Positions 20,762 through 26,152 of a DNA stretch of 41,389 bases are shown here, in pieces. The stretch spans positions 1 through 41,389 of the forward strand of contig JADLCR010000042.1 in the NCBI GenBank assembly GCA_020847095.1, read 5' to 3'. The notes below the pieces were generated by a model, which was not told the origin of the DNA, did not search any database, and was given only the letters and a program-made list of their open reading frames with translations. Made by a program: the position numbers and the translations under genes. This stretch comes from Oligoflexia bacterium. Lineage in GTDB: Bacteria; Bdellovibrionota; Bdellovibrionia; JABDDW01. Numbering within the stretch: the stretch's first letter is position 1; every line of letters starts with the position of its first letter.

Positions 20762-22420
20762 TTTTGCTGATTTCTTCTTGGATTTTTTTGACTTCGTGCT
20801 CGCGACCATTCGCCCTTCAGGCAGTTTTGTGGGAACCAAATAGGCAAGTTGCGTAGCCTCTGATTTTTTCAAAAGGGCCGACCACTGGGATCCGTATTGT
20901 TGAAGGGCTGCTTGTTGAGCCCAAGCCCAAAGCGGGTTATCCATGGCGATGCGATTGGCCTTGTCTTTAATATCTTGAGGATCTTCGCTCTTCACTGAAA
21001 TCACAAAATCCAGTGCAAGAAAAACATGACGTTCAAATGTTGTGAGCTTGGTGGACTCAAGATTTTTTGATGTTTGAATCCAGTCTTTTAAAGATATTTT
21101 TGATTCGGGGTCGTTCACTTTTTTCCACCAGAAACTTAACTTGTAAGAAGAAGAGGTGTCGGCCGCTGGGGCGCGCTTTTCTTGACATCCGACGGTCCAT
21201 TCTTTCCAGTAAGGGATCGAGGTGCAAGAAGCATTGTCGATTTGGCAAACCGCCAGCGCTTGCGCCTCGCATGCCGCGGTTGTGAGATGGCCATAAACTA
21301 CTTTTTCTATTTTACCCAGTGAACTTTCGGGGATGTGAATAAGATCTTGATTCAAAAGGCTCGTCGCTGTTTGAAAGTCGCCCTTTTTTGAAAGAAGTTT
21401 GGCCTGTGCTGTCTTCAGAGCGAGATACTGGGCAGAATGCAAAAGGGCCTTTTTAGATTGCTCGGCCAAGTATTCAATTTCCTCATTAACATTGGCGAAC
21501 TCTCCCAAACGCTGAATCACTCTGAGTACGGGGAGAGCACCCGCTTTGTGGCTTGTACCCGTTGCATGGGTGAGTAATTCAGCGATTAATTGGGCCGATT
21601 GACAGGGTTGCGAGCCTTCTTGGCCGGCTCGGCAGAGATAATCTTCGTCTGCTTGCATGTGAGTCTTGTAGTAGTCAAATCGGTTAACTTCGGGAAGGAG
21701 GCGGGCCGAACCGAAGTGTCCCAAAAGTCTTAGAAGTTTTTGTTCGGTTTCGGGAAGGCCTTGATCTTTAACTTCGGGGAGACTTCCACTGAGAAGAGCC
21801 CAAGACAACGCTTCAAGGTTGTGGGGAACGGCGGTGATGTTTTGATTGGCGAGCCGTTTAACTTGCACGACGAATAACATGGAAAGAGTCACTATAAGCA
21901 AAACGGAAGCAACGATTCCCCAAGATACCCCAATGGATTTTTCAAAATTCTTAACAGGGGATGAAGGCTGGGAATCGTGCAAGACCACGGTCTCGGCCAC
22001 GATATCGTGCCAGGCGCGACGGTCTGATCGGCTTAGTATCGTGCTCCAACTTGCACCCATCGAAAAAAGGCCAATCCACCAAGATGTCGTGCGCTGCAAG
22101 ATTTGCCAGTGGGAGAGTGGCTTTCCGGGATGAGTTGAAACAACTCGTAAGCCAAGGGCCCTTTTTCCGGGCGTAGTTCCCATGAGAGCCAGACAGAGGC
22201 TGTGACCCGAAATAGAAATAAAGGGCCAAAACAAGAGCCAAGTGAGCCACCAATTGAAGGTCCATGCTTTTTCAGGAAAAAGAAGTTGTAACGCTGACCC
22301 TGTAAGAAAGCCGATCAAGGCCTGATCGATCCCTTGGGCCACAAGCCGCAGCCAGGGATTTGCTATTTTCCATTGATCAAATGCTCTTCTTTTCAGTGGG
22401 ATAACGGACTTGGCTTCCAT
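20729..22420 (-). CDS. RDD-domain membrane protein with large periplasmic or cytoplasmic helical domain
   Basis: 563 residues. Residues 20-155 form an RDD domain: three hydrophobic segments, GTTPGKRALGLRVVS in the loop and RRAWHDIVAETVV at the end. A fourth membrane segment, WGIVASVLLIVTLSMLFVVQV, follows near 170. The remaining 370 residues are soluble, helix-rich and contain several Cys, suggesting TPR-like or solenoid repeats; no family recognised. The C-terminus is Lys/Ser-rich (STKSKKSKKKSAKSG). RDD proteins have been linked to ion transport, but for this long form function is unknown. The start ATG follows AGGGGC. Confidence 0.8.
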   Translation of the reverse strand: MEAKSVIPLKRRAFDQWKIANPWLRLVAQGIDQALIGFLTGSALQLLFPEKAWTFNWWLTWLLFWPFISISGHSLCLALMGTTPGKRALGLRVVSTHPGKPLSHWQILQRTTSWWIGLFSMGASWSTILSRSDRRAWHDIVAETVVLHDSQPSSPVKNFEKSIGVSWGIVASVLLIVTLSMLFVVQVKRLANQNITAVPHNLEALSWALLSGSLPEVKDQGLPETEQKLLRLLGHFGSARLLPEVNRFDYYKTHMQADEDYLCRAGQEGSQPCQSAQLIAELLTHATGTSHKAGALPVLRVIQRLGEFANVNEEIEYLAEQSKKALLHSAQYLALKTAQAKLLSKKGDFQTATSLLNQDLIHIPESSLGKIEKVVYGHLTTAACEAQALAVCQIDNASCTSIPYWKEWTVGCQEKRAPAADTSSSYKLSFWWKKVNDPESKISLKDWIQTSKNLESTKLTTFERHVFLALDFVISVKSEDPQDIKDKANRIAMDNPLWAWAQQAALQQYGSQWSALLKKSEATQLAYLVPTKLPEGRMVASTKSKKSKKKSAKSGSRGTASRR

Positions 22421-22489
22421 AAGCCCCTAATCGGATTTTGAACGCCAATTTTGAGGCTAGGTTAGTGCTTGGACTTTGGGACAGGACCC

Positions 22490-22518
22490 TTGACTTGGGG
22501 CCCAATGGCCGGTATCCA
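22490..22518 (+). promoter_or_regulatory. Candidate promoter of tRNA-Arg
   Basis: TTGACT, a 17-base spacer and TATCCA, ending 15 bases before the mature tRNA 5' end. The only good -35/-10 pair in the short gap in front of the tRNA. Confidence 0.55.
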
Positions 22519-22533
22519 TTTGGGCTTCTATTG

Positions 22534-22610
22534 GCGGCCGTAGCTCAGTTGGATAGAGCATCAGACTTCGAATCTGAGGGTCGCAGGTTCGACTCCTGCC
22601 GGCCGCACCA
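22534..22610 (+). tRNA. tRNA-Arg (anticodon TCG)
   Basis: 77-base cloverleaf with encoded CCA. Acceptor GCGGCCG pairs with CGGCCGC; D-arm GCTCAGTTGGATAGAGC; anticodon stem TCAGA/TCTGA with loop CTTCGAA, so anticodon TCG reads CGA (Arg); T-arm GCAGG/CCTGC with TTCGACT loop. A second, interrupted copy of its T-arm and acceptor 3' half lies at 22776-22867. Confidence 0.96.
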
Positions 22611-22735
22611 CTCAAACGCACAAAATGGCCTCATCTGCTTTGTCGCCTCGTCGTTCCTCCTCGGAGTACGTTTGTGTACACCTGCGTCGTCACATCCTCG
22701 TCTCCTCGCATCTGAGGCCATTTTGTGCGTTTGAG
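22611..22735. repeat. 23-bp perfect inverted repeat starting at the tRNA CCA
   Basis: Arm 22611-22633 begins directly after the tRNA CCA (CTCAAACGCACAAAATGG...) and is the exact reverse complement of 22713-22735. The second arm lies inside the 104-bp direct repeat; the first arm therefore looks like an inverted piece of that repeat. There is no T-run, so it is not a standard terminator. Confidence 0.9.
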
Positions 22736-22771
22736 GTAGTTGTTGGTGGTTTGAGTTGGAACTGGGATCAA
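22668..22771 (-). pseudogene. Left copy of 104-bp direct repeat: truncated 5' end of HTH/recombinase-like gene
   Basis: Matches 25791-25894 at 103 of 104 bases. Read on the minus strand it encodes the same first 34 or so residues (TKWPQMRGDEDVTTQVYTN) as the gene at 25511-25894 and then diverges into unrelated sequence and stops, so it is a 5' fragment of that gene. The repeat's end coincides with the TTG start codon of the full copy. Confidence 0.85.
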
Positions 22772-22775
22772 GAAT

Positions 22776-22867
22776 GCAGGTTCGACAATTCGCCCAGGAT
22801 GGAGCGAATTGGCTGCCGAAGGCCGAGCGAGCGGGAAGCGAGCGTAGCACTCCTGCCGGCCGCACCA
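22776..22867 (+). pseudogene. Second copy of tRNA-Arg 3' end, split by a 62-bp insert
   Basis: 22776-22786 (GCAGGTTCGAC) and 22849-22867 (ACTCCTGCCGGCCGCACCA) together repeat the T-arm, acceptor 3' strand and CCA of the intact tRNA gene. Between them, 22787-22848 is foreign, and AC occurs on both sides as a possible 2-base target duplication. It cannot form a tRNA. tRNA 3'-end copies of this sort are typical marks of integration. Confidence 0.88.
22787..22848. repeat. 62-bp palindromic insert inside the tRNA remnant
   Basis: Begins with a hairpin AATTCGC/GCGAATT (22787-22793 with 22804-22810), then continues as a GC-rich tract with repeated GAGCGAGCG/AAGCGAGCG units. The shape recalls small dispersed palindromic repeats. 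No second copy is seen in this window. Confidence 0.6.
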
Positions 22868-22959
22868 AATTTCGCCTCCGTAAATTATCGGAATCATTCG
22901 AATAAAAAATTGAAAAACAATGCTCTCCCAGACGGACTAGAACACTTGGGATTCCAATT

Positions 22960-24165
22960 CTATCTAGAAAGCACATCTACAGCTCTCTTCAATTGCAAAT
23001 CCTCTTGAAAGACATGATTGATGGGGTATTCAACATGAATATCCGGGGCAATTCCCCTTCCTTCTATTACCTGTCCATCAAGAAGAATCTGTGAAATAGC
23101 GAGATAAAGAAGATAACCCTGATTCTCATCTTTAAAATTAATTTCACCTGTCGAAAAATAACCTGGAGTGGACGTTCCCACTAACGTTGCACGCCTCGTC
23201 TTCTTGAATTGAAATGTGAGCGATTCTTTACCGGATCTAACACCTTCATTTATCAATACTGCCATCGGCTTATCGAAATAATCGTGTGACTCAATCGGAT
23301 CAGCACCATACTGGGTTTTCTGTCCATCACGCTGAACCACCGTAAACTTAAAATATTCATTCCTATCCTTAAAGAAGGGATCCAGGTATTCATACCAGGC
23401 GCCACCATAACCATCTCGGAGATCCAAGATCAATCCTTCGGCAGTCTTGAAATCTTCGGCAACTGCGCGCGCCAACTCTTTTCTAAAGGACTCATGGGTG
23501 CCTGCCCATAGGTGAATGTAGCCTAGAGTTTTCTTTCCAGTGGAAATAAGCCGAATGCTATTTTTCATAGCCTTAAAAAACGACTCGTGAATTGATTCAA
23601 ACACTGGACTCACTTTCACAAGTAACGTTTTTCCATTCCTGCCGATTTTTAAAGTGCGCTCTCTGCCACTTTTAAATGAAGAAATAGGTTGAAACTTCTC
23701 TCCATCCGCAGAAAGGATTAAGTCGCCCCTTTTTAGCCCAGCCAGATCCGCTGGATATTTCTCAAGGACCGAGCGAACTCGATACAGTCCCTCTAATTCT
23801 GAAAAATACTGCGCACCAATGTGATGGAGGCGAGGCTCTTCAATTTTTCGAGCGGTAAAGAGAGATTGAAAAAAATAATAGTCCTGATCAAAATGAGTTA
23901 GAAATTGCGTATGAGAAATATTTAGCGATCTAAGGAATGGATTAATGATGCCCGATAGCTCTTCTAAGCCATCCGCTTTTTCAGCTTTTTTTCTTAAATT
24001 TCTATAGTTCTTTTGGGTAAAAAACTTAGCTTCAAGCTTTTGAGGTGAAATTTTCGAACTAGCCCTACTCCATACCTTGTCGAAAACATCAGCCATCTCT
24101 TGGGAAGCCTGTAATGAGTGAGAACTGATCAATGACACTAAGAGGAGGAATAAGAACCTAGTCAT
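22960..24165 (-). CDS. Exported S41-family serine protease (C-terminal/tricorn-type)
   Basis: Predicted periplasmic protease. Start ATG 24165 (MTRFLFLLLVSLISSHSLQA) gives a clean signal peptide; an ATG four codons upstream is possible. Order: N-terminal helical part with SHTQFLTHF near residue 85, a PDZ-like segment (YPADLAGLKRGDLILSADGE near 145), then the S41 core with GLILDLRDGYGGAWYEY near 245 and the nucleophile Ser311 in NEGVRSGKESL. The residue 25 positions further on, where Ser-Lys dyad CTPs have Lys, is Tyr (TSTPGYFS), so it resembles the S41B branch. It overlaps the preceding membrane-protein gene by 8 bases and ends a minus-strand operon. Base composition is AT-richer than flanking housekeeping genes. 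Confidence 0.85.
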   Translation of the reverse strand: MTRFLFLLLVSLISSHSLQASQEMADVFDKVWSRASSKISPQKLEAKFFTQKNYRNLRKKAEKADGLEELSGIINPFLRSLNISHTQFLTHFDQDYYFFQSLFTARKIEEPRLHHIGAQYFSELEGLYRVRSVLEKYPADLAGLKRGDLILSADGEKFQPISSFKSGRERTLKIGRNGKTLLVKVSPVFESIHESFFKAMKNSIRLISTGKKTLGYIHLWAGTHESFRKELARAVAEDFKTAEGLILDLRDGYGGAWYEYLDPFFKDRNEYFKFTVVQRDGQKTQYGADPIESHDYFDKPMAVLINEGVRSGKESLTFQFKKTRRATLVGTSTPGYFSTGEINFKDENQGYLLYLAISQILLDGQVIEGRGIAPDIHVEYPINHVFQEDLQLKRAVDVLSR

Positions 24166-24748
24166 TAACACTTCCAACTTTTCTCGAATACCAATGAAAG
24201 GTACCGAGTTGCCACAGTAGTATTCCTAACAGTACCGCCGATGTGCTCAAGGGAAACCGGTAACCAAAACGTTCACTTTCGGGAGCAGGTTCTTTGAACT
24301 CCTTGTCCCAGGGGGAAAATTTTAAACCTAAGGACAAAACATGTTTCTTCCCATTTATAATTTTGCCTTCTGGCAGACGACTGACGTTAATTTGAAATAG
24401 GGTCAAAACAAGCAGGAAACTGATAATAGCGATTGTAGAAAAGAACACTTTTTTTGCTGCCGCTCCGGCAATGGCAACTTCGCGCTCATCCCGTTCTTTA
24501 ATTCGAACGAGCCGCCGCACGAGCTCTTCTCTAAATGCAGATGATCCAATCAACGCAACTCCTAAATAAATTGCACTCAGCATCCAAAAGCCCATACTGA
24601 AACCCAGTGCACTATTAACCCAGTCAGCCCACCCTTCAGTTTTTGCCATTTCATTTAATTTCTCCGAAATCTCAGAGAACACCATGAATGCGATGATGGG
24701 AAGCGCACACAGGAAATAGATGATTACAAACTTATTTATCTTTTTCAT
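24158..24748 (-). CDS. Membrane protein of unknown function, DUF2178-like
   Basis: 196 residues with four hydrophobic segments: FVIIYFLCALPIIAFMVF near 7-24, GFWMLSAIYLGVALIG near 53-68, FFSTIAIISFLLVLTLF near 102-118, and SAVLLGILLWQLGTF near 170-184. The cytoplasmic loop RIKERDEREVAIAGAAAKK recalls the ERDER...IA..A signature of DUF2178-type proteins, which often sit next to small XRE regulators. It starts 17 bases inside the regulator gene (GAGAGAG before ATG) and ends inside the protease gene, so all three are translationally coupled. Possible roles are sensor or immunity partner; unproven. Confidence 0.72.
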   Translation of the reverse strand: MKKINKFVIIYFLCALPIIAFMVFSEISEKLNEMAKTEGWADWVNSALGFSMGFWMLSAIYLGVALIGSSAFREELVRRLVRIKERDEREVAIAGAAAKKVFFSTIAIISFLLVLTLFQINVSRLPEGKIINGKKHVLSLGLKFSPWDKEFKEPAPESERFGYRFPLSTSAVLLGILLWQLGTFHWYSRKVGSVND

Positions 24749-24989
24749 TTTCTCTCTCGATCAGAAAAATATTCTCAATACTTGTGTCAAAGAAAAAGCT
24801 CAGCTTGAATGCAAGTTCGAGGGTTGGGTTATAGTTTCCCTTTTCAATGGCAATAATAGTCCCTCTAGTAACACCGATCTCTTCTGCTAATTCTTCCTGA
24901 GTAATCCGTCTCTCTGCTCGAAGAATGTGCAGTCGCGTCTGGATGTTGAGCTTTTTGTTCTTTAACTTCATATGGTTTCTAGTTTTCAT
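24732..24989 (-). CDS. Small XRE-family (Cro/CI-like) transcriptional regulator
   Basis: 85-residue single-domain DNA-binding protein. HTH: LRAERRITQEELAEEIGVTRGTIIAIEKG near 23-51, then NPTLELAFKLSFFFDTSIENIF, as in the YozG-like group. The start may be ATG 24989 or ATG 24971 (MKLKNKKLN); neither has a clear ribosome-binding site. It overlaps the membrane-protein gene by 17 bases. A perfect 10-bp palindrome one base upstream of the first ATG could be its operator. Confidence 0.87.
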   Translation of the reverse strand: MKTRNHMKLKNKKLNIQTRLHILRAERRITQEELAEEIGVTRGTIIAIEKGNYNPTLELAFKLSFFFDTSIENIFLIERENEKDK

Positions 24990-24990
24990 A

Positions 24991-25015
24991 GGTCAGGGGA
25001 ATTTATCCCCTGACC
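24991..25015. promoter_or_regulatory. Perfect palindrome before the XRE regulator gene
   Basis: GGTCAGGGGA (24991-25000), loop ATTTA, TCCCCTGACC (25006-25015). It fills the 32-base gap between the exported-protein gene and the regulator start. No T-run follows on the minus strand, so an operator or an mRNA processing/attenuation hairpin is likelier than a terminator. Confidence 0.65.
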
Positions 25016-25021
25016 AAACAG

Positions 25022-25423
25022 TTATTTCAAATACATACTCATTAAAAAGTTAATACCAGTAGCCACACCCGTGCTGCCTGATGCACCAGCTGAAATATTC
25101 CCCTTCAAAACATCTTGAATGGGCTTAAAGTTGATCCCGTCGAAGCTCAATAAAATATTGCCCTGATCTTCTCTTAAGAAAAACTCTTGTTTAACCGTGA
25201 CGAGACTTGGTGATGACTGAGTCGTTTCTAGGAGGTCGCCATTGGTTTCGACCTTGAGAGTTATGACATCGCCTTTTACAAATTGGATTACATCGCCTGT
25301 TTTCAATAAATACTGTAGAGAGTAGGCATTGCCGTCGAACTCGGAAACCCTCTTTACTTTAGCCTCAGAAATCGAAGTGGATGAAACGATACTGAATAAT
25401 ACAAGTGCAAAGAATGCTTTCAT
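25022..25423 (-). CDS. Small exported protein of unknown function
   Basis: 133 residues, not recognised. AAGGAG lies before the ATG, and a signal peptide ends near SISEA (residue 21). The mature part looks beta-rich (VIQFVKGDVITLKVE) and ends in a Gly/Ser-rich stretch followed by a hydrophobic INFLMSMYL. No cysteine. It is followed after 32 bases by the XRE regulator on the same strand, so it may be the first gene of a four-gene operon with regulator, membrane protein and protease; it could be the protease's substrate or partner, which is speculation. Confidence 0.65.
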   Translation of the reverse strand: MKAFFALVLFSIVSSTSISEAKVKRVSEFDGNAYSLQYLLKTGDVIQFVKGDVITLKVETNGDLLETTQSSPSLVTVKQEFFLREDQGNILLSFDGINFKPIQDVLKGNISAGASGSTGVATGINFLMSMYLK

Positions 25424-25468
25424 TGTTTTCTCCTTCTGCTCAATGGCAGTTTGTTATCCTTAAAAGCA

Positions 25469-25515
25469 TAAGTATTATTTACCGCACTAAATGTCAAATA
25501 TACTGAACATTTAGT
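25469..25515 (-). promoter_or_regulatory. Candidate promoter with overlapping 9-bp inverted repeat
   Basis: On the minus strand a perfect -35 TTGACA (25492-25497) is followed after 17 bases by a weak -10 TACTTA, 46 bases before the exported-protein ATG. The repeat ACTAAATGT (25486-25494) / ACATTTAGT (25507-25515) overlaps the -35 box and would suit an operator. Confidence 0.5.
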
Positions 25516-25894
25516 TTAAAATATACGACATTTGATGTTGAAAAACGGCAAATCGAATGTGTTCAACGATGAAACGACAAATTTTAAGCTCCTTTTTATT
25601 TAAAATTAATTTGCCGTCTTGAACTGAGTAGCCATACGGAGGATTACTGATGCGGTAATTTTCAGGGTTTTTGGATCTTAGTTGGTAAGACTGATCTACC
25701 AGAATTCCCATCGCCCGCAGTCGACTGGCAATGGTCATTCTTGAGACCTGAAATCGTTTGGCGATTTGGACAGTGGAAAGTCCTTCTTCCACGTTTGTGT
25801 ACACCTGCGTCGTCACATCCTCGTCTCCTCGCATCTGAGGCCATTTTGTGCGTTTGAGGTAGTTGTTGGTGGTTGGAGTTGGAACTGGGATCAA
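25511..25894 (-). CDS. HTH protein with recombinase-like C-terminal segment (probable recombinase fragment)
   Basis: 127 residues from a TTG, or 107 from an internal ATG (MRGDEDVTTQVYTN). A resolvase-like HTH (LSTVQIAKRFQVSRMTIASR) is followed by ISNPPYGYSVQDGKLILNKK and ELKICRFIVEH, which resemble the 'recombinase' domain of large serine recombinases (xPYGY...dGkl...E...). The catalytic resolvase domain with its serine is absent, so it is a fragment, a derived regulator, or a small member of this group. The first 104 bases are duplicated beside the tRNA-Arg gene (22668-22771). Confidence 0.6.
   Translation of the reverse strand: MIPVPTPTTNNYLKRTKWPQMRGDEDVTTQVYTNVEEGLSTVQIAKRFQVSRMTIASRLRAMGILVDQSYQLRSKNPENYRISNPPYGYSVQDGKLILNKKELKICRFIVEHIRFAVFQHQMSYILN
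25791..25894. repeat. Right copy of the 104-bp direct repeat
   Basis: 103 of 104 bases equal 22668-22771, in the same orientation; the one mismatch is near the right end (GGTTGGAG here, GGTTTGAG there). The two copies bound a 3,123-bp unit holding the interrupted tRNA remnant and five minus-strand genes. Recombination between them would excise the unit as a circle. Confidence 0.93.
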
Positions 25895-25952
25895 ATTTTA
25901 GCTTCAGATCTCTATCGCCATATATCGTCAAACTCAGTCGTCCCTAGGTCAT

Positions 25953-25968
25953 GTGCGCTTGTGCGCAC
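25953..25968. promoter_or_regulatory. 16-bp palindrome upstream of sigma-54 promoter
   Basis: GTGCGC-TTGT-GCGCAC, about 36 bases before the -24 element. It could be an activator (enhancer-binding protein) site, although these usually lie further upstream; it could also be a hairpin, since CCCTTTGGGATTTTTT follows. Confidence 0.4.
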
Positions 25969-26003
25969 GCCCTTTGGGATTTTTTCGTTTTTCCTTTCAC
26001 TGT

Positions 26004-26020
26004 TTGGCACATCCCTTGCC
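26004..26020 (+). promoter_or_regulatory. Near-consensus sigma-54 (-24/-12) promoter
   Basis: TTGGCACATCCCTTGCC matches the RpoN consensus TGGCAC-N5-TTGC, with exactly 10 bases between the invariant GG and GC. Orientation is toward the exported-protein gene at 26153; transcription should start near 26031, leaving a leader of about 120 bases with a GAGAATCT/AGATTCTC pairing (26055-26062 with 26103-26110). Confidence 0.72.
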
Positions 26021-26152
26021 GTTCAAGTTCCAGGGGACTCTATAAAATAATAAGGAGAATCTCCCCCTTCCGATACTGAACTAATTGCTCAGGTTGGCTG
26101 TAAGATTCTCAGTTGGGGACCAAGTCAATTTATTTTTTATTGGAGTAACAAA

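What the first reader, a model, noticed from the sequence alone, without database searches (positions are those of the whole stretch)
22534..25894. tRNA-Arg-linked 3.1-kb unit bounded by 104-bp direct repeats
The repeats at 22668-22771 and 25791-25894 differ at one base and have the same orientation. Between them are five same-strand genes plus a second copy of the tRNA-Arg 3' end. The right repeat ends exactly at the TTG start of a HTH/recombinase-like gene, and the left repeat is the 5' fragment of that gene. Recombination across the repeats would release a 3,123-bp circle carrying a tRNA 3'-end copy as a possible attachment site. This does not match a standard tyrosine-integrase island, since no integrase is present. 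It may be a small, non-autonomous or degenerate integrative unit with exported-protease cargo.
Basis: partly seen in the sequence, partly recalled or inferred. Interest (0 to 1): 0.78.

Follow-up and report, generated by a model that had tools for sequence, protein, structure and literature searches.

The report
tRNA-linked repeat unit with trapped cargo
The repeats behind this arginine tRNA gene belong to structured repeat units that carry a copy of the tRNA's end; related structured units sit behind many tRNA genes in this bacterial phylum and are missing from the RNA-family catalogue, and a 3.3-kb piece of DNA is lodged between a whole and a broken unit.

Summary
In detail: 104-bp direct repeats at 22668-22771 and 25791-25894 (one mismatch), and a 19-nt tRNA-Arg 3'-end copy at 22849-22867. 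The reading as a small integrative unit holds only in part. The left repeat is part of a complete 257-nt tRNA-linked unit (22611-22867): a long hairpin, a linker, a T-arm copy split in its T-loop by a structured insert, and the tRNA 3' end. The right repeat is a truncated copy of hairpin plus linker. Removing 22612-25895 joins tRNA and flank gap-free (162/174) against the paralogous tRNA-Arg(acg) locus, so 3,284 bp are inserted at the tRNA end. The 'recombinase-like gene' is a fragment; no integrase lies on the contig. Eleven of 38 tRNA genes here carry such units, against 0 of 102 examined in four relatives. One unit type is a strongly covarying structure (32 of 40 pairs) found in 78 of 369 genomes of the phylum and absent from Rfam 15. 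The window's type resembles E. coli rtT repeats: a model from this genome's units ranks all four E. coli copies as its best outside hits (E 0.03-0.21). How units spread, and whether they act as RNA or DNA, is open; an integrase-site model failed.

The parts
22534..22610 (+). tRNA-Arg(tcg), host of the insertion
   Evidence: ARAGORN; Rfam tRNA
22611..22867 (+). complete tRNA-linked repeat unit (257 nt), RtT-like type 1
   Evidence: architecture shared with units at tRNA-Ser(gct), Arg(cct), Pro(cgg), Pro(ggg); model R3, built from four such units including this one, matches 22771-22867
22611..22735 (+). hairpin B directly behind CCA; arms 22611-22638 / 22708-22735
   Evidence: inverted repeat; fold z -5.2
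22668..22771 (+). left 104-bp repeat: 3' part of hairpin B plus linker
22777..22786 (+). copy of the 5' half of the tRNA-Arg T-arm (GCAGGTTCGA)
   Evidence: sequence
22787..22850 (+). structured insert of about 64 nt in the T-loop of the tRNA copy; a 91% identical insert lies in the T-loop of a tRNA-Ser 3'-end copy on contig C57
   Evidence: only in this genome among 144 of the class
22849..22867 (+). 19-nt copy of the tRNA-Arg 3' end incl. CCA
22612..25895 (.). inserted segment, 3,284 bp
   Evidence: removal restores a gap-free 162/174 alignment to the tRNA-Arg(acg) locus
22960..24177 (-). S41 (C-terminal processing type) peptidase with PDZ domain, signal-like N terminus (inference)
   Evidence: Pfam PF03572 E 5e-22
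24158..24748 (-). 196-aa membrane protein (inference), no family above cut-off
24732..24989 (-). XRE/HTH_3 regulator, overlaps the membrane protein gene
   Evidence: Pfam PF01381 E 2e-13
25022..25423 (-). 133-aa exported-looking protein, no family in Pfam
25556..25792 (-). fragment of an HTH/recombinase-DNA-binding-like gene (both ends lost); ORF 25511-25894 is a fusion with the repeat
25791..25894 (+). right 104-bp repeat: truncated copy of hairpin B (3' half) plus linker
25896..25996 (+). 5' part of another tRNA-linked hairpin (A), which on contig C19 starts directly behind tRNA-Arg(acg)
   Evidence: 90% over 101 nt

Best explanation
Positions 22612-25895 are a 3,284-bp insertion directly behind the CCA end of tRNA-Arg(tcg). 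It opens with a complete tRNA-linked repeat unit (hairpin B, linker, T-arm copy with structured T-loop insert, tRNA 3' end), carries four cargo genes and a gene fragment, and ends with a truncated second copy of hairpin B plus linker, which makes the 104-bp repeats. Such units are modules that insert and rearrange at tRNA 3' ends of this genome, each bringing a copy of the tRNA end. I infer that the 104-bp shared sequence then acted as homology for recombination (host RecA or an enzyme acting in trans), so that DNA became held between a whole and a broken unit. Shown: boundaries, unit anatomy, recurrence at other tRNAs, and swapped unit order between two tRNA-Pro genes. Inferred: unit mobility as the cause, the recombination step, and any circle.
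For: Gap-free paralogous empty site. Conserved left side and replaced right side at the same tRNA-Arg in two sister genera. 3'-end copies of 17-21 nt, starting in the T-loop, behind 11 of 38 tRNA genes here and 0 of 102 in four relatives. Units as modules: tRNA-Pro(cgg) has U1-U2, tRNA-Pro(ggg) has U2-U1, with U1 285/297 and U2 263/268 identical; a 182-nt unit begins to repeat in tandem behind tRNA-Arg(cct). A second case of a large segment between a whole and a broken unit: 12,190 bp between identical 63-nt ends behind tRNA-His on C33. The window's T-loop insert recurs in a tRNA-Ser copy. Type-2 unit sequences resemble each other more within a genome than between genomes (0.698 vs 0.582; 0 of 5000 label shuffles).
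Against: No enzyme that moves the units was found. The tyrosine-integrase link suggested by contig C45 failed: 0 of the other 29 closest homologue loci have a unit within 1.5 kb. The empty site is paralogous, and flank A is itself a tRNA-linked hairpin that could have been copied. Contigs of this genome tend to end in these repeats (C19, C21), so a mis-join at a 104-bp repeat cannot be excluded without reads. The cargo could have entered by an unrelated route.
Confidence: 0.6

Rival explanations
1. The units are functional RNAs, as rtT was described in E. coli: made with or behind the tRNA, folded, and ended at the tRNA-like CCA. The direct repeats and cargo are a by-product of duplication of a useful RNA gene.
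For: Type-2 units show strong covariation (32 of 40 pairs changed on both sides, 94.4% of cells paired against 75.4% shuffled and about 40% when slid). Units are on the tRNA's strand and end at the tRNA 3' end. E. coli RttR is annotated as a small RNA ending at that CCA.
Against: A terminator-like hairpin followed by a T-run lies between tRNA and unit in many cases, so co-transcription would be weak. Sister genera lack units at all 78 tRNAs examined, so any function is dispensable. Unit sequences group by genome rather than by tRNA.
Confidence: 0.35
2. A self-contained small integrative element: a circle of 3,123 bp recombines across the 104-bp repeat, with the tRNA copy as attachment site.
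For: Direct repeats, tRNA location, gap-free paralogous junction.
Against: No integrase on the contig, the HTH ORF is a fragment without catalytic domain, no tRNA 3' end at the right end, and the tRNA copy is explained by the repeat unit.
Confidence: 0.1
3. The units are attachment sites of a tyrosine-integrase family, and solo units are scars.
For: On contig C45 an integrase gene is followed after 145 nt by a unit with a tRNA-Val 3' end; a similar order in genome G185.
Against: 0 of the other 29 closest integrase homologue loci have a unit within 1.5 kb; most units lie behind a tRNA without an integrase next to them.
Confidence: 0.07
4. Assembly artefact: the 104-bp repeat let the assembler place a 3.1-kb piece (plasmid, or other locus) behind tRNA-Arg.
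For: Draft genome in 112 contigs; contigs C19 and C21 end inside such repeats.
Against: The contig runs through both copies, which differ at one base; the left copy continues into tRNA-Arg-specific sequence (T-arm copy) that fits this locus.
Confidence: 0.12

Closest known systems
E. coli tyrT/tyrV rtT repeats (Rfam RF00391, RttR)
   Same: 178-nt repeat units behind a tRNA, each ending in the 19-nt tRNA 3' end (AATCC...CCA), with a direct T-arm copy AAGGTTCGAC split in the T-loop by small hairpins such as CCCGAAGGG. Model R3 from four local units, built without E. coli, ranks all four E. coli copies as its best outside hits at the exact positions (E 0.03-0.21).
   Different: The Rfam RtT model does not reach E 1 in the window stretch. 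Here units occur behind many different tRNAs, carry long hairpins or terminators at their 5' side, and one bounds a cargo insertion.
tRNA-integrated genomic islands with attL/attR (tyrosine integrase)
   Same: Insertion at the tRNA 3' end, tRNA fragment downstream, direct repeats, variable region. PMC9897764 describes such partial tRNA copies as attR remnants.
   Different: No integrase, no tRNA copy at the far end, repeats are hairpin sequence rather than tRNA, and tRNA copies occur in structured units of 160-300 nt, some in tandem.
Type-2 tRNA-linked structured units of this phylum (models R1, R2; not in Rfam 15)
   Same: Same place behind tRNAs and same tRNA 3'-end copy at the 3' end.
   Different: Type 2 has a closing helix whose 5' strand is the reverse complement of the tRNA end and a conserved P5 hairpin; the window's unit scores only 13.3 bits, E 0.12, with R2.

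Membership tests
Rfam RtT (RF00391) | reaches the family's gathering score | tested here: not met
   no RtT match in 22400-26100 at E up to 1; positive control in E. coli 133-138 bits
Rfam RtT (RF00391) | unit ends with the tRNA 3' end from the T-loop to CCA | tested here: met
   22849-22867
Rfam RtT (RF00391) | direct T-arm copy interrupted in the T-loop by hairpins | tested here: met
   GCAGGTTCGA + insert + CTCCTGC
Rfam RtT (RF00391) | upstream strand complementary to the tRNA 3' end | tested here: inconclusive
   seen in the folds of the Ser and Arg(cct) units, not evident for the window unit
Rfam RtT (RF00391) | stable small RNA released | not testable with these tools
   needs RNA data
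Tyrosine-integrase island | integrase gene in the element | tested here: not met
   5 PF00589 genes in the genome, none on contig C42
Tyrosine-integrase island | tRNA 3'-end copy at the distal end | tested here: not met
   right end is GGGATCAA joined to ATTTTAGC; no tRNA sequence
Tyrosine-integrase island | insertion exactly at the tRNA 3' end | tested here: met
   against a paralogous locus
Type-2 tRNA-linked structured unit (model R2) | clear covariance-model score | tested here: inconclusive
   window 22760-22865: 13.3 bits, E 0.12
Serine-recombinase element | intact recombinase with catalytic domain | tested here: not met
   ORF is a fragment; the full-length homologue has PF07508 but no resolvase catalytic domain match
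REP/RAYT-type palindromes | linked Y1 transposase | not tested
   PF01797 was not searched in the genome

The most novel reading that the evidence does not exclude
A widespread, previously uncatalogued class of mobile structured element at tRNA genes: each copy is a 140-300-nt unit whose closing helix is built from the host tRNA's own 3' end (a direct copy on one side and, in type 2, its reverse complement on the other). Copies move between tRNAs, re-adapt the helix to each tRNA, and can bracket cargo DNA. E. coli rtT would be one relic of the same class.
Probability: 0.35. Interest if true: 0.85.

Novelty: new variant of a known kind. Interest (0 to 1): 0.6.

Why it matters
To my knowledge rtT repeats have been treated as an oddity of one E. 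coli tRNA operon. The evidence here shows that tRNA-linked units with a copied tRNA 3' end are a recurring genome feature: 11 of 38 tRNA genes in this genome, and a covarying structured family in 78 of 369 genomes of the phylum that Rfam 15 does not hold. This gives a clear system in which to test whether such units are RNAs that affect tRNA maturation or DNA elements that move between tRNAs, and how tRNA genes become insertion hot spots without an integrase.

Tried and rejected
Integrase-site model: homologues of the C45 integrase were sought in 369 genomes and 30 loci scanned with R2; apart from C45 itself none had a unit. Rejected. Defence or phage cargo: PADLOC and PHROGs gave only generic HTH matches for the XRE protein and weak matches to the fragment. 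Phage records: only tRNA matches. Search of 144 class genomes with the window's tRNA-copy stretch including the T-loop insert: no match outside this genome. Search of about 85,000 species genomes for the hairpin-B core: 40 exact hits, none next to a tRNA, i.e. chance. Two patterns of the type-2 P5 hairpin in 2.9 million viral contigs: none. Rfam at loose thresholds for the units: only tRNAs and chance hits. Paper searches found no description of such units; RtT is mentioned once, for a tandem-GA motif.
Full report
OBSERVATION. tRNA-Arg(tcg) lies at 22534-22610. The 104-bp direct repeats 22668-22771 and 25791-25894 differ only at T22752/G. A 19-nt copy of the tRNA 3' end is at 22849-22867. One search also shows a 28-nt inverted repeat, 22611-22638 with 22708-22735, so a 125-nt hairpin (B) starts directly behind the CCA; the stretch folds with z -5.2. 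The left 104-bp repeat is the second part of this hairpin plus a linker. The right repeat is a hairpin B without its first 57 nt.

WHAT THE tRNA COPY IS. The sequence GCAGGTTCGA (T-arm 5' half) at 22777-22786 and ACTCCTGCCGGCCGCACCA at 22849-22867 are one T-arm plus acceptor copy split in the T-loop by a structured insert. The same insert, 91% identical, splits a tRNA-Ser(gct) 3'-end copy behind the tRNA-Ser gene on contig C57. Scanning the flanks of all 38 tRNA genes found in this genome showed direct 3'-end copies of 17-21 nt behind 11 of them, always starting in the T-loop and running to CCA in the first copy, and an inverted copy behind one more. In four relatives, 0 of 102 tRNAs have one within 1 kb; that includes all 78 tRNAs examined in the two sister genera. 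Downstream sequence was short for some tRNAs because contigs end there.

UNITS ARE MODULES. Behind tRNA-Pro(cgg) the order of two units is U1-U2, and behind tRNA-Pro(ggg) it is U2-U1; U1 is 285/297 and U2 263/268 identical between the loci, whereas U1 and U2 differ strongly. A 182-nt unit begins to repeat in tandem behind tRNA-Arg(cct) where the contig ends. This is recombination or movement of whole units with borders at CCA.

TWO UNIT TYPES. Type 1 (Arg tcg, Arg cct, Ser, Pro) has a direct T-arm copy interrupted by hairpins. E. coli tyrT/tyrV rtT repeats have the same plan: 178-nt units, 19-nt 3' end, AAGGTTCGAC, CCCGAAGGG hairpin, and the Rfam RtT model covers that plan. The Rfam model does not hit the window. 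Model R3, built from four local type-1 units without E. coli, gives the four E. coli copies as its best outside matches at E 0.033, 0.043, 0.15 and 0.21, in register and ending at CCA. I take this as RtT-like, not as proven membership. R3 rests on a weak four-sequence alignment.

Type 2 (Gly, Met, Leu x3, His here) is closed by a helix whose 5' strand is the reverse complement of the tRNA's 3' part. A 47-position model of its P5 hairpin found further units in eight other genomes of the class; of the 30 best hits (which include the training sequences), 27 lie behind a tRNA and 26 of these continue into that tRNA's own 3' end. The closing helix is tRNA-specific: 18 of 30 units pair 8 or more nt with their own tail against 13% of mismatched combinations. 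A 21-sequence alignment has 32 of 40 pairs changed on both sides, 94.4% of cells paired against 75.4% in shuffles and 34-44% when slid, and covariation 0.573 against 0.237; the structure was derived from this alignment. The full model R2 matches 78 of 369 genomes and 52 of 182 genera of the phylum. Of 22 tested new loci outside the training genomes, 11 show the tRNA plus matching copy; several others end in tRNA-like CCA tails without a tRNA within 1.5 kb. No Rfam 15 family matches. The phylum is unnamed in the tool; Bdellovibrionota is my inference and was not tested.

THE 3.3-kb INSERTION. Right of the second repeat, 25896-25996 is 90% identical to the sequence that follows tRNA-Arg(acg) directly on contig C19. 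Joining 22534-22611 to 25896-25996 aligns to C19 without a gap over 174 nt, 162 identical. So 22612-25895 is inserted at the tRNA end, with the caveat that this empty site is paralogous. It contains the complete unit, an S41 peptidase with PDZ domain, a membrane protein overlapped by an XRE regulator, an exported-looking protein, a gene fragment, and the broken unit. The fragment (25792-25556) corresponds to residues 72-149 of a 193-aa homologue; the full protein matches the PF07508 recombinase DNA-binding domain but no catalytic domain. GC falls to about 41% in the cargo against 44-50% upstream.

A VARIABLE REGION. In sister genus genome G002, window blocks from about 15.6 to 22.6 kb upstream and 36.6-40.7 kb downstream both match contig C34, with 21 kb of other DNA between the tRNA and the downstream block, against 14 kb here. 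In G001 the upstream side matches too and the DNA behind the tRNA differs. The finding is therefore the tRNA-proximal end of a larger variable region.

SECOND CASE. Behind tRNA-His on C33, two identical 63-nt ends (P5 plus tRNA-His 3' end) are 12,190 bp apart; the far unit is complete and the near one is cut to P5. A segment between a whole and a broken unit thus occurs twice in this genome, which supports recombination between units as the general route (inference).

MECHANISM. Shown: structure, recurrence, tRNA specificity of the type-2 closing helix, module order swap, insertion at CCA. Inferred: that units move; that the shared 104 bp was the crossover region. An integrase next to a unit on C45 and in G185 suggested integrase sites, but 29 other close homologue loci lack units. 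Terminator-like hairpins between many tRNAs and their units argue against simple co-transcription, while the strong covariation argues for selection on a folded strand, RNA or single-stranded DNA. I cannot decide between these.

VERDICT. The integrative-unit reading is partly right as to insertion, wrong as to the tRNA copy and the recombinase. The repeats are parts of rtT-like units, and their wider family is the more interesting result.

Noticed in passing
G000:C33:18388-30642 (L296): 12,190 bp of ordinary-looking genes lie between two identical 63-nt ends (P5 hairpin plus tRNA-His 3' end) behind tRNA-His.
   Followed up: partly
G000:C45:2997-4700 (L297): Tyrosine integrase gene, a tRNA-like T-arm end, then a complete type-2 unit with a tRNA-Val(cac) 3' end, directly followed by a second partial copy of the unit's start; tRNA-Val(cac) itself is on C96 and has no unit.
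   Followed up: partly
tRNA-Pro(cgg) C100 and tRNA-Pro(ggg) C7 (L113, L114): Two units in swapped order behind two tRNA-Pro genes.
   Followed up: yes
G000:C51, L098, about 129 nt behind tRNA-Met: A 20-nt inverted (reverse-complement) copy of the tRNA-Met 3' end behind a long hairpin.
   Followed up: no
L045:9185-9829: In sister genome G002 an ORF that looks like a REP-type Y1 transposase (by eye, no family search) lies directly behind the same tRNA-Arg, in opposite orientation.
   Followed up: no
G137, 12 P5 hits: A genome of about 1.5 Mb has 12 type-2 P5 hits, most of them behind different tRNA genes; tRNAs and copies there often lack an encoded CCA.
   Followed up: partly
several loci, e.g. 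L315, L325, L328: Type-2 units without a tRNA within 1.5 kb upstream still end in tRNA-like CCA tails; they may mark far ends of larger insertions.
   Followed up: no
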